Shown here piece after piece: positions 97-33,056 of a DNA stretch of 35,780 nt. This DNA comes from Maricaulis sp. (GTDB lineage Bacteria; Pseudomonadota; Alphaproteobacteria; Caulobacterales; Maricaulaceae), in NCBI GenBank assembly GCA_029251785.1, contig JAQXCQ010000039.1:1-35780 (forward strand), in the 5' to 3' direction. The first letter of the stretch is position 1, and every line of letters begins with the position of its first letter. A program made the position numbers and the translations under genes. The notes below the pieces were generated by a model. That model made no database searches, was not told the DNA's origin, and saw only the letters and a list, made by a program, of their open reading frames with translations.

Positions 97-1215
97 ATGA
101 ATGCTGTAATCCGGTCGACCGGTCTTTGGACCCCCGACGAGACGATTTCCAATGATGAGCTCGTGGACTGCTACAACACCTATGTGGCGCGCTTTAATGA
201 GGCGCATGCCGGCGAGATCGAGAATGGGACGACCGAGCCGAAAAACCCGTCTTCCTCGGCGTTTATCGAGAAGGCGTCGGGCATCAAGTCTCGCTATACG
301 GTCAATAAGTCGGGCTGTCTGGACGTCGACCGGATGCGGCCGCTTTTGCCGCGACGCTCGGACGATGAGCTGTGTCTGATGGCCGAGGCCGGTGTGGCGG
401 CGGCGCGTGAGGCGCTGGCTGTGGCGGATCGTGATCCGTCCGAGATTGATGCGGTGATCTGTGCGGCGACGACGATGGAGCGGACCTATCCGTGTATCGC
501 CATTGAGATTCAAAACGAGTTGGGCATTGACGGTTTTGCCTATGACATGTCGGTGGCGTGTTCATCCGGCACGTTTGGCATTATCTCCGCGGTCAATATG
601 ATCGCCACCGGGCAGGCCAAATCGGTGTTGCTGGTGACGCCGGAGATCACCACGCCGCAACTTAATTTCCGCGATCGCGACAGTCATTTCATCTTTGGCG
701 ATGTCGCCGTGGCGATGCTGATCGAGGCCGAAGATGTGGCCGGCGATGGCAATGGTTGGTCGATCATCGGCACGCGTATGATGACCAAGTTTTCCAATAC
801 CATCCGTTCCAATCTGGGCTATCTCAATGCCAGCCACGATCCCGAACCGGCGTTTGAGGAGCGCTATTTCTCCCAGGAAGGCCGTCGCGTCTTTAAGGAA
901 GTCTGCCCGATGGTGGCGGCTTTGATCCTGGAAGAGCTGGGGAAGCTGGATTTGGGGCCTGAGAACATGAAGCGTCTGTGGCTGCACCAGGCCAATATCA
1001 ATATGAATATGATGGTCGCCCGCAAGGTCTATGGCCGCGACTTCACCGAAGAAGAAGCGCCGGTCGTGCTGGATGAATTTGCCAATATCGCCGGCGCCGG
1101 ATCACTGGTGGCATTCCATCGCCACCATGAGGGCATCGCAGCGGGCGAGAAGGGCGTGATCTGCTCGTTTGGGGCGGGTTATTCCGCCGGTACGGTGTTT
1201 GTTGAGAAGCGGTAG
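97..1215 (+). CDS. Beta-ketoacyl-ACP synthase III (FabH-like), copy 1
   Basis: A thiolase-fold condensing enzyme of 372 aa. FabH-type enzymes join an acyl-CoA or acyl-ACP primer to malonyl-ACP. The triad is visible: Cys155 in VACSSG, His297 in LHQANIN and Asn330 in FANIAGAGS, the last position usually reading GNTS in housekeeping FabH. At 372 aa it is longer than E. coli FabH (317 aa), with extra sequence between residues 35 and 90, which suggests a specialised FabH paralogue acting on preformed acyl primers rather than the initiator. GGGGTGAG just before ATG97 serves as ribosome binding site. A second copy, alike along its whole length, lies at 3688-4803. The family is clear; the substrate is unknown. 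Confidence 0.9.
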   Translation: MNAVIRSTGLWTPDETISNDELVDCYNTYVARFNEAHAGEIENGTTEPKNPSSSAFIEKASGIKSRYTVNKSGCLDVDRMRPLLPRRSDDELCLMAEAGVAAAREALAVADRDPSEIDAVICAATTMERTYPCIAIEIQNELGIDGFAYDMSVACSSGTFGIISAVNMIATGQAKSVLLVTPEITTPQLNFRDRDSHFIFGDVAVAMLIEAEDVAGDGNGWSIIGTRMMTKFSNTIRSNLGYLNASHDPEPAFEERYFSQEGRRVFKEVCPMVAALILEELGKLDLGPENMKRLWLHQANINMNMMVARKVYGRDFTEEEAPVVLDEFANIAGAGSLVAFHRHHEGIAAGEKGVICSFGAGYSAGTVFVEKR

Positions 1216-3687: not shown

Positions 3688-4803
3688 GTGCAGACAAGCA
3701 TAATTCGTTCGACCGGGTATTGGGTTCCGCCCAATGTGATCAGTAATGAAGAGCTGGTGGAGAGCTATAATCGCTATGCCACGCGCTTTAACAGCGACAA
3801 TGCGGCAGCGATAACCGCGGGCGAGTTGGCGGACGTGCCGCTCTCCAGCGCTGAATTTGTCAAGAATGCCTCGGGCATTGAACGGCGGCATGTGATTGAA
3901 AAGTCGGGTATTCTCGATATCGATCATTTGCGACCCCATATCACGCCGCGGCCCTTTGATGAGGTGTCGTTTCATGCGGAATTTGCCCTGAAATCGGTCA
4001 AAATCGCGCTGGAGAAGGCCGGGATTGATGGCAGCGATGTGGATGGTGTGATCGTCGCGTCCTCGGCTCAGCAGCGGAATTTTCCCGGCATTGCCTGTGA
4101 GATTCAGAGCCTGATCGGCTCGCAAGGCTGGTCGTTTGATCTGACCATGGCCTGCGCCTCGGCGCTGTATGGGCTTAATATCGCCAATGCGATGATCGCC
4201 TCGGGCCAGGCGAAACGCATCTTGGTGTGCTCGCCGGAGATTATGACCTGTATCAATGTGCATTCGCGCCGCGATGTGCACTTCATCTTTGGTGATGCCT
4301 CCAGCGCTATTCTGGTAGAGGCCGAGGATGGTCAGGCCGGTGGCTGGGACGTGCTGGGCACGCATACCAAGAACAAGTTTTCCAATAATCTGCGCTCTGA
4401 TTTTGGCTTCCTCAATGATGCGGAACGCTCTGTGGAACCGGACTTTTCGCCGGGCCTCGATCAGGACGGGCAAAAAGTGTTTAAGGACGTGGTGTCCTTC
4501 TCGCCGACTGTCGCGCGGGAGCTGATGGACCGGCTCAAGATTGCGCCGGAGGATGTGCGCCGCACCTGGCTGCACCAGGCCAATATCCGGATGGTGGAGA
4601 TGATCGCCAAACGCATTCTGGGCCGGGACCGTACACCGGAAAATGCGCCGGGCATTTTGCACGAATACGGCAATACTTCATCCTCCTCCGTGGTGATGAA
4701 TTTTGAAATGCATTCCGATGACATGGCCGCCGGCGAGACCGGTCTGATGTGTGCGTTTGGGGCCGGCTATGGTGTCGGTGCCGCTGCAATTAGGAAACGC
4801 TGA
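3688..4803 (+). CDS. Beta-ketoacyl-ACP synthase III (FabH-like), copy 2
   Basis: A 371-aa paralogue of the gene at 97-1215, alike along the whole length (for example IRSTG, ISN.ELV, ASGI, HFIFGDA, KFSN, TWLHQANI). Catalytic Cys156 lies in MACASAL, His296 in LHQANI and Asn329 in GNTSSSS, here the canonical GNTS form. It starts with GTG at 3688; no ATG precedes the conserved IRSTG motif, and the upstream ribosome binding site is weak (GGCGAGCTAAG). It overlaps the next gene by one base (TGATG), implying translational coupling. The two copies probably arose by duplication and then differentiated; Ser/Ala changes near the active Cys and acyl pocket may alter primer choice. The substrate is unknown. 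Confidence 0.9.
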   Translation: MQTSIIRSTGYWVPPNVISNEELVESYNRYATRFNSDNAAAITAGELADVPLSSAEFVKNASGIERRHVIEKSGILDIDHLRPHITPRPFDEVSFHAEFALKSVKIALEKAGIDGSDVDGVIVASSAQQRNFPGIACEIQSLIGSQGWSFDLTMACASALYGLNIANAMIASGQAKRILVCSPEIMTCINVHSRRDVHFIFGDASSAILVEAEDGQAGGWDVLGTHTKNKFSNNLRSDFGFLNDAERSVEPDFSPGLDQDGQKVFKDVVSFSPTVARELMDRLKIAPEDVRRTWLHQANIRMVEMIAKRILGRDRTPENAPGILHEYGNTSSSSVVMNFEMHSDDMAAGETGLMCAFGAGYGVGAAAIRKR

Positions 4804-28781: not shown

Positions 28782-29008
28782 TCCGGTCCGCCCGCATCCT
28801 GACGAAAGTCATTACGTCATTCCACGGGCAATGCCCAAAAACGCCTTCTTCCCAGGTGGGTAGAATTTGTTTGCGAGAACACTCAAATACGCTTGAATAG
28901 CGATTAAATAAACCCAAACCTATTTCAGGTAGCATTCCAAGTCATTGGACTTGCACTCATTAGCGGACAAGCCGCTGAGCGGTACGGGTGCGTTATTCGG
29001 GACGCGAC

Positions 29009-29950
29009 ATGGCCAAATCTGTCAAAAAAGCCATTGCAGAGATCGATGCTTTTCGCGAGGATCGGATTGCGCTGGTGATGTTGCAGGACATTGCGTTAAG
29101 CCTGATCGCCACACCGGAGCCGGAATATTTGTCTGGATTTGTTGAGGCGGCGGGTCAGGCCATGGGCGCTGATATGGTTTTGGTCAGCCGAATTCGATCC
29201 CCGGAAGAGCCGGTGACCGCAATTGCCATCTATGACCGGTCTGGTCAGGCCAGCCATTATGAGTATCCTTTGCGTGGCACGCCGTGTGAGCAAGTGTTCA
29301 TCGACAATCAGCCGTTTGTGATGGGCTGCGGATTGCAGGAGGCGTTTCCATCCGACGAGGATTTGGGGGCCTTCGGGCTGAACTCCTATGTCGGCATGCC
29401 ATTGTTTCATGAGGGCAAGTGTTTTGGCCTCGTCGCTGCCCTGTTTCGTGCCGAAAACCCGCCCAGTGAGCCAATCCTGAAAGTGTTTAAGCATGTCGAG
29501 GACCGGATCGCATCCGGCATTCGTGCTTATGATGCGATTCAGGCGGAGCGTCTGGAACTTCGCGGGCAGGTGGCCCATGGGCGCAAACGTCTGGAAATCG
29601 CTCTGGGTGCGTCGGGTATCGGTGTGTGGGAATACGATATGACGGCGGGATCAACGCGCTGGGATGACCGCATGTGCGAGCTGTACGGTGTGCCCTGGCA
29701 AGGGGAGATCGTGAAGCCGGAGGAATGGCTCAAATTTATTCATCCCGATGATCTTGAAGCTGTTTGGGGAAATACGCTGCGCGCGGTCCAGGACCGCAAA
29801 CCCTACCAGATTGAGTTTCGGATTCTGCGCTTAGGCGGGGCTGTTCGAACGCTGCGTTCGGTCGGTCAATATGTGGAGATCGAGGGCGCTAATCCCGGCT
29901 TTATCGGGTGCGATCGCGACATTACTGACGACATGGCCCTGGCCGTGTAA
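29009..29950 (+). CDS. GAF-PAS sensor half of an interrupted histidine kinase
   Basis: A 313-aa product from ATG29009 (GTG28988 is an alternative). An N-terminal GAF domain (about 25-170: IALSLIATPEPEYLSGFVEA through NSYVGMPLFHEGKCFGLVAA) is followed by a PAS_3-type domain (about 188-305: LEIALGASGIGVWEYDMTAG, FIHPDDLEAVWG, IEFRILRLGG, FIGCDRDITDD). It ends at TAA29948. The same frame continues without another stop into a histidine-kinase core, so this looks like the sensor part of one ancestral kinase. Alone it could still bind a ligand but not signal. No membrane span, so it is a cytoplasmic sensor. An inverted repeat CAAGTC-ATTG-GACTTG lies at 28938-28953 upstream. Confidence 0.82.
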   Translation: MAKSVKKAIAEIDAFREDRIALVMLQDIALSLIATPEPEYLSGFVEAAGQAMGADMVLVSRIRSPEEPVTAIAIYDRSGQASHYEYPLRGTPCEQVFIDNQPFVMGCGLQEAFPSDEDLGAFGLNSYVGMPLFHEGKCFGLVAALFRAENPPSEPILKVFKHVEDRIASGIRAYDAIQAERLELRGQVAHGRKRLEIALGASGIGVWEYDMTAGSTRWDDRMCELYGVPWQGEIVKPEEWLKFIHPDDLEAVWGNTLRAVQDRKPYQIEFRILRLGGAVRTLRSVGQYVEIEGANPGFIGCDRDITDDMALAV

Positions 29951-30691
29951 TTAAAGGATCGTTCCCGCGAAGCGGAGGCGGCCAATCTGGCGAAATCTCA
30001 ATTTTTGGCCAATGCCAGCCATGAATTGCGAACGCCGCTCAACCACATTCTGTCGAGCCTCGAAATTCTCCGGTCAAGCGGCTATGATGAAACGCAGGAA
30101 AAGTGGCTCGGTGTTGCAAAAAGCAGCGGCCAGAACTTGCTAAATATTATCAATGATTTCCTCGACATGACACGTCTTGAAAACCGAACCATGGATGTGG
30201 ATCGCACGGCATTTGACCCGAGGGATATTGTCGAACACGCGGTTGAGATGTGTGTTGGAGATGATCGCTCTGTTTCGCTCAGGCTGAATGTTCATCCCGA
30301 AACCCCGCAAGTCTTGGTATCCGACCCGAGACGGGTCGGGCAAGTGGTGATCAATTTGCTGTCAAATGCGATGAAATTTGGCAAGGACAAACCGATCGAG
30401 GTGGTCATGAGCCCGGCGCAACACGCCGATATGAGTGTCCGTCTTGAGGTGGCGGATAAGGGGTGTGGCATTGAGCCGGCCCAGCAGGCCGCGATTTTTG
30501 ATCGACTGCATCAAGTGAATGGCGATTGTAATCGTGTGCATGGCGGCAATGGGCTGGGCCTGTCGATTTGCCGCGAGCTGGTGACGCTGCTTGGCGGGTA
30601 TATCGGCGTCGACAGCACGCCGGGTGAGGGCAGTCGCTTCTATGTTGAATTGCCCGCTCTCGATACTGATCACGACGAGCAGGCGGCCTAG
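29951..30691 (+). CDS. Histidine kinase core half, downstream of in-frame stop
   Basis: The frame resumes right after TAA29948-29950 and runs to 30691. The first possible start codon is TTG30005, giving 228 aa that begin inside the H-box region. Dimerisation H-box: FLANASHELRTPLNHILSSL with the phospho-acceptor His; N-box LLSNAMKF; G1 DKGCGIEPAQ; F-box IFDRLHQ; G2 GNGLGLSICRELVTLLGGYI. All catalytic blocks look intact and there is no receiver domain. The 18 codons before TTG30005 (KDRSREAEAANLAKSQF) encode the normal coiled linker, so a true start inside the conserved helix is unlikely. No ribosome binding site is evident. Probably a recently broken gene. Confidence 0.8.
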   Translation, partial: LKDRSREAEAANLAKSQFLANASHELRTPLNHILSSLEILRSSGYDETQEKWLGVAKSSGQNLLNIINDFLDMTRLENRTMDVDRTAFDPRDIVEHAVEMCVGDDRSVSLRLNVHPETPQVLVSDPRRVGQVVINLLSNAMKFGKDKPIEVVMSPAQHADMSVRLEVADKGCGIEPAQQAAIFDRLHQVNGDCNRVHGGNGLGLSICRELVTLLGGYIGVDSTPGEGSRFYVELPALDTDHDEQAA

Positions 30692-30784: not shown

Positions 30785-31453
30785 CTAATCCGCTGGGGGG
30801 CGATGTTGTGCCCCGCGTGCTTCAAGCCAGCGAACCATGTCTCCGCGATTTAGGCGGCGTGCTTCGCTGAGTGGTGAGCGATAGACCTCCTCGCCCTGTG
30901 CTGTTTCTGAATCATATTGGGAGGCCCGCACTGTCAGCGATAGATCGGCACCGGCAGCGACCAGTAATTCAGCGACATCAAGATGGCCGGACTGGGCGGC
31001 ATTGATCAGCGGTGTTTCATCGCCATAGATATAGCCGTCAACTGCGGCACCGCGATCGAGCAAAGCTGTGACCATGGCGGTTTCGCCACGCTGGGCCGCG
31101 GCAATCAATGGATTGCCATCGCCACCAATGCCCAGCTCGGGATCCGCTCCTGCAGTGATTAATTGATCGAAGATATCCATATCGCCGCGACGGGCTGCGG
31201 CGATCAGGGGTGAGCCGTCGCCGCTGACAGCGAGATTTGCATCGGCGCCATTGGCTAATAGCACAGTGACAACGTCTCCGCGGCCGCGGCGCACCGCGGC
31301 GATAAGGGCCGTGCCGTCGCCGCGGAAGACGCGATTGACGTCGGCACCGTTCTCAATCAGTTCACGAACGCGATCGAGGCGACCGCGGGATGCGGCGTGA
31401 AACAGAGCTGAATCGGGATGGCGACGATCATCTATATCGCCGTGTCCGGGTGA
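30785..31453 (-). pseudogene. Ankyrin-repeat frame, probably the frameshifted 3' part of the M56 gene
   Basis: The frame encodes about six ankyrin repeats: DSALFHAASRGRLDRVRELI then ENGADVN; GTALIAAVRRGRGDVVTVLL; GSPLIAAARRGDMDIFDQLI; GNPLIAAAQRGETAMVTALL; ETPLINAAQSGHLDVAELLV; and a last one ending DMVRWLEARGAQ. The first start codon in the frame is GTG31294, which would cut off the first repeat and part of the second. Upstream of it the frame is open to 31453 with no ATG, GTG or TTG, beginning inside the end of the M56 gene, which is one base out of register. The simplest reading is a former M56-ankyrin fusion broken by a single-base indel. A separate protein from GTG31294, or a sequencing error, remains possible. 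Confidence 0.65.
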
Positions 31454-32511
31454 TTACTATTGCGATGGCCGTGATTATGGTTGGACTTCTGCTCCTGATC
31501 GGCCGCGACATAAACGGTCTCGGCGGCGCCGACATGGGGGGTGAGAACGAGGGCGCTGGTGGCAAGCAGGGGCAGGATAATTGAGAGACGCATGGGGGAA
31601 TGACTCCGTTTGAGGACGCGGGGGGACGTCAGGTGATCGATCCGGGCGGCGAGAGCCGACCGGCTCGGGGTTGAGGCAAGCGCCAGGGCAGGGATCTGGC
31701 GTGTTGTTGAAGACATAAGAGATCGTGAAGCGGCATCGAGCAGGGCGGTGGCTAAATGGTGCGGCGTCTGGGTGATGCGGGCCGCGCGACTGTCGCACAG
31801 CGCTTCGCGGGTCGTGTTCAGGATCGGCAGCAAAGCGTGCAGCGGCGCGACCCACCACAGGGGAATGATCAGGAAGCGCAGACCCAATACCGTCCACGGA
31901 TCGCGGCGTTCCAAATGCGCGATTTCATGTTCCAGAACCGGGCGGGCGCTGTCGTCGAAGCTGAAATTTCGTGGCAGCAGGATGACGGGGCGCAGATAGC
32001 CGACCAGAAGCGGCGAGGTGGCCGTCTCGCTGGTGCGCACCTCGATCTTGCGAGACAACTTTATGTGCGATGGAATGCGGGTGGGCTGACTGTCGCGACG
32101 CAAGTGCTCCAGCCCCAGAAGGTCACGGCCGAGACGGGCCAGCAGGGCCAGGCTAATCGCCGTCCAGCCGACCAGGGCAATCAGCGGCCATTCAACACGA
32201 ATGCCGGTTGAAGTAGACGGTGCGGACGTTGCAGGCATTGCAAGAGCGGCCGCATTCATGCCCCCTTCGGAGCTGGCAATCGGTGTGGCCTCGGCGGCGA
32301 TGCGAATGATTTCGGTCGCACTGGGCTGCAGCGCGATCAGCAAGACGATTGGAGCCAACAATAGAGACGCCAACGCCAGATCATGACGCTCGGCGACATA
32401 GCGGGCCGGGGCAAATTTGTTGAAGGCCAGTACGCCAGCGCTGAGGGCCGTCAGGGCGAGCAGGGTAATGCCGGCGGCATTGAGAAGCGTGTACAAAAAG
32501 TCGGGACTCAT
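31432..32511 (-). CDS. M56 (BlaR1-like) membrane metallopeptidase
   Basis: A 359-aa membrane protease of the BlaR1/MecR1 type. Five likely spans: 8-30, 45-63, 108-128, 208-230 and 312-332. The zinc motif HEIAH lies at 195-199 (PVLEHEIAHLERRDPW), with a further Glu near 236 (NTTREALCDSRAA). In characterised systems such a protease cleaves the cognate BlaI repressor on a signal; no penicillin-binding sensor domain is present here. The start overlaps the BlaI-like gene by ATGA. The C-terminus is His/Asn-rich (NHNHGHRNSNH) and stops at TAG31432, just where the ankyrin frame opens in the -1 register. Confidence 0.9.
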   Translation of the reverse strand: MSPDFLYTLLNAAGITLLALTALSAGVLAFNKFAPARYVAERHDLALASLLLAPIVLLIALQPSATEIIRIAAEATPIASSEGGMNAAALAMPATSAPSTSTGIRVEWPLIALVGWTAISLALLARLGRDLLGLEHLRRDSQPTRIPSHIKLSRKIEVRTSETATSPLLVGYLRPVILLPRNFSFDDSARPVLEHEIAHLERRDPWTVLGLRFLIIPLWWVAPLHALLPILNTTREALCDSRAARITQTPHHLATALLDAASRSLMSSTTRQIPALALASTPSRSALAARIDHLTSPRVLKRSHSPMRLSIILPLLATSALVLTPHVGAAETVYVAADQEQKSNHNHGHRNSNHPDTAI

Positions 32512-32900
32512 GTGTCGGCCTCCTGATCGTTGATTTTCTCGGCGAGGGCGGCGCGCAATTGCTCGATATCGTCGGCGGTGAGTTTTTCATCCTCAATTAG
32601 ATGCAGGGCCAGCTTTTGCGGTGAGCCGCCAAACAGGGATTTGACCAGGGAGCCCAGTGCCGAACTCTGCGCCTTCTCGCGGCTTAAGAGCGGGAAGAAG
32701 ATATGGGCGCGACCTTCCTTGCGAAAATCGACAAAACCCTTATCCGCCATGATGCGGATCGTGGTCAGCACCGTGGTATAGGCGAGCCCGTATTTCGGCT
32801 CCAGCGCCTCGGTCAATTCCCGCACGCTGGCTTCGCTCCGATTCCAGAGCTCGTCCATCAAACGTTGTTCGGCGGTGGTCAGTTGCGGTGTCGATTTCAT
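32508..32900 (-). CDS. BlaI/MecI/CopY family repressor
   Basis: A 130-aa winged-helix repressor. Family pattern: LTTAEQRLMDELWNRSEASV, then RELTEAL, YTTVLTTIRIMADKGFV with the recognition helix, and a C-terminal dimerisation helix pair (SLVKSLFGG, then LTADDIEQLRAALAEKI). BlaI-type repressors bind inverted repeats as dimers and are inactivated by cleavage by the M56 partner. The gene is first in the pair, coupled by ATGA. It probably controls its own promoter through the inverted repeat at 32912-32958. Confidence 0.92.
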   Translation of the reverse strand: MKSTPQLTTAEQRLMDELWNRSEASVRELTEALEPKYGLAYTTVLTTIRIMADKGFVDFRKEGRAHIFFPLLSREKAQSSALGSLVKSLFGGSPQKLALHLIEDEKLTADDIEQLRAALAEKINDQEADT

Positions 32901-32911
32901 CTACCAAGTCC

Positions 32912-32958
32912 TTAGTTGATAACCCTAGAATGCATGGGAGTTCATGTGCGTCAACTAA
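32912..32958 (-). promoter_or_regulatory. Promoter/operator of the BlaI-M56 pair
   Basis: TTAGTTGA at 32912-32919 and TCAACTAA at 32951-32958 form perfect 8-bp inverted arms 31 bases apart. On the minus strand TTGACG (32954-32949) overlaps the upstream arm and would be the -35; a weak -10 (ATTCTA) follows after 17 bases. The downstream arm then covers the start of transcription, a layout that fits repression by a BlaI dimer. Further upstream ACTACATCTTTAGT (minus strand) resembles the ACTACA-NN-TGTAGT-type BlaI box. Confidence 0.55.
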
Positions 32959-33056
32959 AGATGTAGTAGGTTTGGCTTTTGGGGAGGGGTTTGTCGATTA
33001 TGATAAGCTAAATCAGTTGGTTGTGTGATTATTAAATCGACGAAATAAACACAAAA

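What the first reader, a model, noticed from the sequence alone, without database searches (positions are those of the whole stretch)
30785..32511. M56 peptidase and ankyrin repeats look like one gene broken by a frameshift
Ankyrin repeats begin immediately after the M56 stop but in the -1 register. The ankyrin frame has no usable start before GTG31294, which would delete the first repeat and part of the second. The two frames overlap only in 31432-31453. A BlaR1-like protease with a cytoplasmic or periplasmic ankyrin tail instead of a beta-lactam sensor would be an unusual signalling protein. The alternatives are an indel, a sequencing error or programmed -1 shifting.
Basis: partly seen in the sequence, partly recalled or inferred. 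Interest (0 to 1): 0.7.

Follow-up and report, generated by a model that had tools for sequence, protein, structure and literature searches.

The report
Frameshifted ankyrin-tailed BlaR1-like membrane receptor
This is one bacterial gene, for a membrane protease that normally carries a protein-binding ankyrin tail where its famous cousin carries a penicillin sensor, found here cut in two by a frameshift; intact copies in related bacteria show that the protease-ankyrin receptor is a real and conserved design.

Summary
The M56 frame (31432-32511, minus) and the ankyrin frame (30785-31453, minus) overlap by 22 nt in a -1 register, and the ankyrin frame has no usual start before GTG31294. They are two halves of one gene: 12 of 12 near-full-length orthologues in the genus, and further genomes of the family and of two other families, encode one uninterrupted M56-ankyrin protein. 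A BlaI-like repressor gene lies upstream; 12 of 18 relatives carry exactly one copy of the operator ACTAANNNNTTAGTTGA, and 9 of 12 orthologues have a PF00144 (beta-lactamase/DD-peptidase family) gene downstream. The intact system looks like blaI-blaR1-bla with a periplasmic ankyrin domain in place of the penicillin sensor. Programmed frameshifting is very unlikely. The break is a recent real mutation or an assembly error; no reads were available. A neighbouring histidine-kinase gene is also broken, the partner enzyme was not found and the main operator departs by one base, which leans towards local decay; the ankyrin part is still as constrained as in intact relatives. The broken copy is ordinary; the ankyrin-sensor variant was not found in the open papers searched.

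The parts
31432..32511 (-). 5' part of the gene: M56 (BlaR1-type) membrane metalloprotease with HEIAH motif; ends at TAG in the linker after the last hydrophobic segment
   Evidence: PF05569 56.2 bits, cut-off 31; HEIAH at residue 195, hydrophobic segments 5-23, 45-63, 110-128, 206-224, 306-324; REALCD zinc-ligand region aligned with relatives
30785..31453 (-). 3' part of the same gene in the -1 register: six ankyrin repeats, no ATG/GTG/TTG before GTG31294
   Evidence: Pfam ankyrin families; AF2 mean pLDDT 84.4, helix pairs 13-34, 49-67, 82-100, 115-133, 148-166, 194-212; frame read
31432..31453 (-). stretch in which the net -1 offset must lie (only overlap of the two open frames); His/Asn-rich linker
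   Evidence: no X XXY YYZ heptamer and no run of four or more identical bases in 31421-31500
32508..32900 (-). BlaI/MecI-family repressor, overlaps the M56 start by 4 nt
   Evidence: PF03965 104.2 bits, cut-off 22.6; MecI and BlaI structures 1sd6, 1okr, 1sd4; overlap
32951..32967 (-). main operator-like site O1, one mismatch to ACTAANNNNTTAGTTGA, 51-67 nt upstream of the blaI start
   Evidence: both one-mismatch sites together: 2 found, 0.01 expected by chance in the window; exact form in 14 of 14 upstream regions read and once per genome in 12 of 18 genus relatives
32903..32919 (+). second operator-like site overlapping the blaI ribosome-binding region, one mismatch (relatives are inexact here too)
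   Evidence: related block at the same place in 14 of 14 upstream regions, exact as a palindrome in L016 only
28988..30691 (+). convergent neighbour: GAF-PAS-HisKA-HATPase histidine kinase, interrupted by an in-frame TAA at 29948-29950 (not part of the system; context)
   Evidence: Pfam of both parts; homologues uninterrupted over the aligned range in G011, G012, G013

Best explanation
The window holds a broken copy of a conserved receptor gene. Shown: relatives encode, as one gene, a BlaR1-type M56 membrane protease with a C-terminal ankyrin domain; in this assembly a net -1 offset in the linker after the last hydrophobic segment ends the M56 frame before the ankyrin domain. Inferred working of the intact system: BlaI dimers hold the operon down at ACTAANNNNTTAGT; the ankyrin domain, in the periplasm where BlaR1 has its penicillin sensor, binds a cell-wall-related protein (the neighbouring PF00144 enzyme or another peptidoglycan enzyme is the best candidate); a change in that contact activates the cytoplasmic zinc site, which cuts BlaI and switches on repressor, receptor and enzyme. 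In the window the product should be a sensorless protease with a short periplasmic tail, and the ankyrin part is probably not made.
For: Single open frame with M56 plus ankyrin in 12 of 12 near-full-length orthologues among 18 genus relatives. Fusions also in genera g10, g15, g17 and in families f2 and f5. BlaI gene directly upstream in 14 of 15 loci read (in the 15th the held flank ends first) and beside 11 of 11 further fusions (with 9 and 45). Operator pattern exactly once per genome in 12 of 18 relatives: in 11 at this operon, in G018 at its contig-cut copy; none in the 5 relatives without the gene; reversed control pattern none in 19. PF00144 gene immediately downstream in 9 of 12, in the 3 g15 fusions and in G196 of family f5. 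Charge before the last hydrophobic segment more positive than after it in 15 of 16 proteins. M23 domain behind the ankyrin repeats in the two g17 proteins scanned. S. aureus BlaR1 is N-out, C-out, cuts BlaI itself and carries its sensor outside (PMC9834060, abstract and passages). Bd3460, a periplasmic six-repeat ankyrin protein, binds and inhibits two DD-endopeptidases, one of them crystallised in the complex acylated with penicillin G (PMC4686830, abstract and passages). For local decay: adjacent kinase gene with a stop, no PF00144 match above 40% identity in G000, no exact operator in G000, and no other broken non-mobile gene among the flagged pairs beside 123 intact matches in a 457 kb sample.
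Against: The ankyrin part shows no relaxed constraint: its identity excess over the M56 part, 0.087 to 0.179 against the 12 genus relatives, is like that among the relatives, 0.123 +/- 0.054, so any mutation is recent, or there is none and the assembly is wrong. G002, G003 and G017 also lack the PF00144 neighbour yet keep an intact fusion. G010 has a second PF00144 copy, 59% identical, away from the operon, so the enzyme is not tied to the operon only. No PF00144 gene was listed beside the other fusions searched, though that list was truncated. The finished-genome control for the break rate failed. No ligand, BlaI cleavage or expression was tested. The linker here is longer than in relatives.
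Confidence: 0.72

Rival explanations
1. Assembly or sequencing error: the organism carries an intact fusion and the consensus of this contig is wrong at 31432-31453.
For: The assembly is a 232-contig draft, 94.96% complete. The ankyrin frame is open over 222 codons and as constrained as in intact relatives. Two neighbouring genes are broken on one contig, as a poor stretch would give. Three intact relatives also lack the PF00144 neighbour, so its absence is weak evidence of decay.
Against: Three genuine breaks (one in a transposase) beside 123 intact matches in the sample compared, so the assembly is not generally error-ridden; no homopolymer at the site; the neighbour's break is a stop codon in frame, not an indel; the main operator site departs by one base from the form exact in 14 of 14 regions.
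Confidence: 0.36
2. Programmed -1 ribosomal frameshifting or transcriptional slippage makes a regulated amount of full-length receptor.
For: The register is -1 and both frames are open on either side.
Against: No slippery heptamer and no run of four identical bases in 31421-31500; 12 of 12 genus orthologues need no shift.
Confidence: 0.03
3. The ankyrin frame is an independent gene translated by coupling or from a rare start.
For: GTG31294 exists; translational coupling after a stop is known in bacteria (recalled).
Against: That start deletes repeat 1 and part of repeat 2; the ATG right after the TAG lies in the M56 register, not the ankyrin one; the 12 genus orthologues encode the ankyrin part in the M56 frame, not separately.
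Confidence: 0.03
4. In the intact system the ankyrin tail is not a sensor but a tethered inhibitor or scaffold for cell-wall enzymes, and signalling by the M56 part is independent of it.
For: Bd3460 is a periplasmic ankyrin inhibitor of DD-endopeptidases (PMC4686830, abstract and passages); M23 hydrolase fused behind the repeats in g17; three g17 members (L042-L044) show no ankyrin match and, by eye, end in an M23-like domain.
Against: The tail sits where BlaR1 has its sensor, and the BlaI gene and, in the loci read, the operator are kept with it.
Confidence: 0.25

Closest known systems
BlaR1/MecR1 with BlaI/MecI (Staphylococcus aureus, Bacillus licheniformis)
   Same: M56 zinc protease in the membrane with HEXXH...E, last hydrophobic segment followed by a C-terminal domain predicted outside the cytoplasm, BlaI-family repressor gene, palindromic operator, and a beta-lactamase-family gene in the operon of most genus relatives
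   Different: Ankyrin repeats instead of a penicillin-binding sensor; far below the NCBIfam blaR1_generic cut-off (31.8 and 44.2 bits against 400); the neighbouring enzyme of relatives is PF00144 (class C/DD-peptidase family); broken in this assembly
Bd3460 of Bdellovibrio bacteriovorus (PMC4686830)
   Same: Six-repeat ankyrin domain in the periplasm (here predicted), encoded beside a serine-type cell-wall enzyme (here only in relatives)
   Different: Bd3460 is a free exported inhibitor, not tethered to a protease or linked to a repressor; no specific homology beyond the ankyrin fold was tested
M56-ankyrin-M23 and M56-M23 proteins of genus g17 (this study, L038-L044)
   Same: M56 domain, BlaI-like gene in the flank, C-terminal tail after the last hydrophobic segment
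   Different: Carry an M23 peptidoglycan-hydrolase domain at the C-terminus (Pfam in L038 and L039; by eye in the others)

Membership tests
BlaR1/MecR1 beta-lactam receptors | M56 gluzincin protease domain with HEXXH...E zinc site | tested here: met
   PF05569 56.2 bits over 31; HEIAH and RE.LCD invariant in 15 aligned relatives and present in the window; spacing as for His201, His205, Glu242 and Asp246 of S. aureus BlaR1 (PMC9834060 passages)
BlaR1/MecR1 beta-lactam receptors | C-terminal penicillin-binding sensor domain | tested here: not met
   Pfam finds ankyrin families after the M56 domain in the window and in the four relatives scanned (plus M23 in two of them); no transpeptidase or beta-lactamase domain in these proteins
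BlaR1/MecR1 beta-lactam receptors | NCBIfam blaR1_generic score over cut-off | tested here: not met
   31.8 bits (window M56 part) and 44.2 (L006) against 400
BlaR1/MecR1 beta-lactam receptors | C-terminal domain outside the cytoplasm | tested here: inconclusive
   Hydropathy and charge agree in 15 of 16 proteins, but this is a prediction; AF2 of the M56 part failed (pLDDT 42.8)
BlaR1/MecR1 beta-lactam receptors | BlaI-family repressor encoded alongside | tested here: met
   PF03965 104.2 bits; adjacent in 14 of 15 loci read and beside 11 of 11 further fusions
BlaR1/MecR1 beta-lactam receptors | Cleaves BlaI on signal | not testable with these tools
   The Asn-Phe pair of MecI aligns with His-Leu in the window and in the 14 relatives read; that Asn-Phe is the cut bond is reported for BlaI (PMC9834060 passage)
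Ankyrin repeat domain | Tandem helix-turn-helix ankyrin repeats | tested here: met
   Pfam, AF2 model, Foldseek top 50 listed matches are ankyrin-type proteins
Programmed -1 frameshift gene | Slippery heptamer and conservation of the shift | tested here: not met
   No heptamer; 12 of 12 orthologues unshifted
Pseudogene | Disrupted frame relative to intact orthologues | tested here: met
   whether the disruption is real or an assembly error is open
Pseudogene | Relaxed constraint after the break | tested here: not met

The most novel reading that the evidence does not exclude
A class of BlaR1-type receptors, spread over at least three families of this order and not found in the papers searched, senses a protein rather than a drug: the periplasmic ankyrin domain holds a co-encoded PF00144 penicillin-interacting-type enzyme (or another peptidoglycan enzyme) and reports its state to the cytoplasmic protease, so the enzyme itself acts as the ligand sensor. 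The window's copy is a natural sensor-deletion form of it.
Probability: 0.28. Interest if true: 0.75.

Novelty: new variant of a known kind. Interest (0 to 1): 0.5.

Why it matters
BlaR1 is the textbook case of direct drug sensing by a membrane protease. A family that keeps the protease, repressor, operator and, in most genus relatives, a beta-lactamase-family gene, but swaps the sensor for an ankyrin domain, would show that the M56 switch is modular and can read protein-protein contacts, perhaps the occupancy of cell-wall enzymes. The one-site-per-genome operator makes it directly testable. The broken copy itself matters little beyond a warning that this locus should not be annotated as two proteins.

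Tried and rejected
Programmed frameshifting (no slippery site; unshifted relatives). Separate ankyrin gene (no start before repeat 1; not separate in relatives).

General poor assembly quality: compared 457 kb of G000 (17,161 bases of it read N, seven small contigs) with 2.0 Mb of G003: 123 intact matches (one frame covering at least 70% of the G003 frame at 35% identity or more and over 80 bits), 18 of them in the window. Seven split pairs were flagged: the two window genes, two pairs from one transposase with an IS240-type DDE domain, and three that I dropped after inspection as upstream extensions of genes that start further in. Earlier passes were replaced; searches flagged many shadow frames. 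The reverse control (breaks in G003) crashed and was not rerun; one search flagged five pairs in that direction, which I did not vet, so the break rate has no finished-genome control. The comparison only sees pairs at most 120 nt apart.

AF2 of the M56 part was too poor to use. Foldseek of the ankyrin part gave generic ankyrins and DARPins in the 50 rows shown. The search for related loci in genome contigs gave one distant KSB1 hit, not used. Paper searches: BlaR1+ankyrin+M56 0, peptidase M56+ankyrin 0, BlaR1+ankyrin 0; BlaI+ankyrin 1,141 papers, of which the 20 listed look unrelated and the rest were not seen ('blai' probably also matches names such as Blair); Maricaulis+ankyrin 1 paper, listing only; BlaR1/M56/BlaI/sensor domain 24 papers, 20 listed; ankyrin repeat+periplasm+bacteria 237 papers, 25 listed; BlaR1-like/M56/metallopeptidase/antirepressor 60 papers, 15 listed. 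Only PMC9834060 and PMC4686830 were opened (abstracts and passages). Only open PMC papers are held, so 'undescribed' is limited to these searches.

Full report
What is there. On the minus strand, a BlaI-family repressor gene (32508-32900; PF03965, 104.2 bits) overlaps by 4 nt the start of an M56 protease frame (31432-32511; PF05569, 56.2 bits over a cut-off of 31), which ends with TAG at 31432-31434. A second frame, open from 31453 to 30785, encodes ankyrin repeats. The two frames share only 31432-31453 and differ by -1 in register. In the ankyrin frame the first ATG/GTG/TTG is GTG31294, residue 54. A single-sequence AlphaFold2 model of the ankyrin frame (mean pLDDT 84.4) is confident from about residue 11 and shows six helix pairs, the first at 13-34 and the second at 49-67, so that start would lose repeat 1 and part of repeat 2.

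One gene. The M56 part was searched in the 18 other genomes of the genus. Twelve have a near-full-length orthologue (E 1.5e-84 to 1.6e-59), one (G018) a fragment at a contig end, and five (G004, G005, G006, G013, G016) nothing better than E 4.3e-6. The 12 lie in single open frames of 559-659 aa that continue into ankyrin repeats. Pfam finds M56 and ankyrin in the same protein in the four relatives scanned: L006, L035, L038, L039. In the family search (137 genomes) further fusions appeared in genus g15 (L035-L037) and g17 (L038-L041). A profile of 15 intact proteins searched against 398 genomes of the order gave 60 genomes with a match at E 1e-30 or better; by my reading of query ranges and open-frame lengths, M56 and ankyrin lie in one frame in genomes of g1, g10, g15 and g17 of the family and of families f5 (G196, G156, G200) and f2 (G269, G320, G332). 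Among the listed rows G000, the window's genome, is the only one whose M56 and ankyrin matches lie side by side in two different frames; genomes with only one of the two matches were not looked at further. The single contig of G003 has 3,368,780 bases, which I recall as the size of the Maricaulis maris MCS10 chromosome; the genus name is therefore recalled, not tested.

How the break arose. In 31421-31500 there is no X XXY YYZ heptamer and no run of four identical bases, and the 12 genus orthologues need no shift, so programmed shifting is very unlikely. The ankyrin part has diverged from relatives no faster than in intact genes: ankyrin identity minus M56 identity is 0.087 to 0.179 against the 12 relatives, compared with 0.123 +/- 0.054 among the relatives themselves. 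So either the mutation is recent or it is an assembly error. To estimate the background I compared 457 kb of the window's genome (17 kb of it masked) with 2.0 Mb of G003: 123 intact matches, 18 in the window, and three genuine breaks, namely this gene, the neighbouring histidine kinase and a transposase with an IS240-type DDE domain. Three other flagged pairs were dropped as frame extensions. The reverse control on the finished genome crashed. The kinase gene (GAF-PAS-HisKA-HATPase, 28988-30691, plus strand) has an in-frame TAA at 29948; homologues are uninterrupted over the aligned range in G011, G012 and G013, while G014 has its best matches in two adjacent frames, split at another place. 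Two breaks within 1.5 kb, and no other in a non-mobile gene of the sample, point to something local: decay of a region no longer used, or a locally poor consensus. I lean to the former because no close homologue of the partner enzyme was found in G000 and the main operator departs by one base, but three intact relatives also lack the partner, and this is not decisive.

The intact system. The BlaI gene is directly upstream in 14 of 15 loci read, overlapping the M56 start by 1 or 4 nt (in the 15th, L007, the held flank ends first), and lies beside 11 of 11 further fusions (with places). Upstream of blaI the 14 loci share a palindrome, ACTAA-N4-TTAGTTGA, exact in 14 of 14, and a second related block over the ribosome-binding region, an exact palindrome only in L016. 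The exact pattern occurs once in each of 12 of 18 genus relatives: in 11 at this operon, in G018 beside its contig-cut copy. It is absent from the five relatives without the gene, from G007 and from G000; the reversed control pattern gave none in 19 genomes. The window has two one-mismatch sites, at 32951-32967 (-) and 32903-32919 (+), where 0.01 are expected by chance; only the first departs from what relatives have. So in the genus the repressor probably controls only its own operon. Directly downstream, on the same strand, most genus relatives carry a PF00144 enzyme: adjacent in 9 of 12 orthologues (G001, G007, G008, G009, G010, G011, G012, G014, G015; not G002, G003, G017), in the 3 g15 fusions and in G196 of family f5 (that list was truncated, so absence elsewhere is not established). 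G010 also has a non-adjacent copy at 59% identity. By eye the N-terminus looks like a signal peptide or lipoprotein signal. In G000 the best PF00144 matches to the G012 enzyme are 40% identical, against 54-63% for the other eight adjacent ones, and none lies beside the window gene. In the two g17 proteins scanned an M23 peptidoglycan-hydrolase domain follows the ankyrin repeats in the same chain.

Where the ankyrin tail is. Hydropathy shows five hydrophobic segments in the window protein, the weakest directly after HEIAH; the last one (306-324) has net charge +3 before and -2 after it; the same sense holds in 15 of 16 proteins, with a tie in L015. This matches the N-out, C-out topology of S. 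aureus BlaR1, whose sensor domain follows the last helix outside the membrane and can be shed by signal peptidase (PMC9834060, abstract and passages). An M23 domain behind the repeats fits the same side. So the ankyrin domain most likely lies in the periplasm, in the place of the penicillin sensor; this is a prediction.

How it would work. BlaR1 cuts BlaI directly, under control of its beta-lactam sensor (PMC9834060). By analogy, the ankyrin domain would bind a periplasmic protein and control the protease. A precedent for the contact is Bd3460 of Bdellovibrio, a periplasmic six-repeat ankyrin protein that binds and inhibits two DD-endopeptidases, one of which was also crystallised in the complex acylated with penicillin G (PMC4686830, abstract and passages). 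The PF00144 neighbour belongs to the family of class C beta-lactamases and DD-peptidases. Binding, cleavage and induction are all inferred. At the position aligned with the Asn-Phe pair of MecI, the BlaI proteins of this group read His-Leu; the cleavage site may therefore differ.

Against what is known. The protein meets the M56 and ankyrin family tests, fails the sensor-domain test and the NCBIfam BlaR1 cut-off (31.8 bits in the window, 44.2 in L006, cut-off 400), so it is not filed as BlaR1; it probably works like one. Searches of open papers for BlaR1 or peptidase M56 together with ankyrin found none. The window copy alone would be a minor curiosity; the conserved receptor type is a new variant of a known kind.

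Noticed in passing
window 28988-30691 (+), stop at 29948-29950: GAF-PAS-HisKA-HATPase histidine kinase interrupted by an in-frame TAA between the PAS and HisKA domains; homologues uninterrupted over the aligned range in G011, G012, G013.
   Followed up: partly
upstream of blaI in L006, L008-L017, L035-L037; window 32903-32967: Palindromic operator ACTAANNNNTTAGTTGA, exactly one copy per genome in 12 of 18 genus relatives, with a second related block over the ribosome-binding region.
   Followed up: yes
L038-L044 (genus g17): M56-ankyrin-M23 fusions (Pfam in L038, L039) and, by eye, M56-M23 proteins without ankyrin repeats (L042-L044): receptor-like proteases carrying a peptidoglycan hydrolase as tail.
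   Followed up: partly
L176:11409-12110 (-): Broken transposase gene with an IS240-type DDE domain on another contig of the window's genome.
   Followed up: partly
window 97-1215 and 3688-4803 (+): Two ketoacyl-synthase-like proteins (FabH type by eye) on the same strand, with a dipeptidase-like gene (by eye) between them; not examined further.
   Followed up: no
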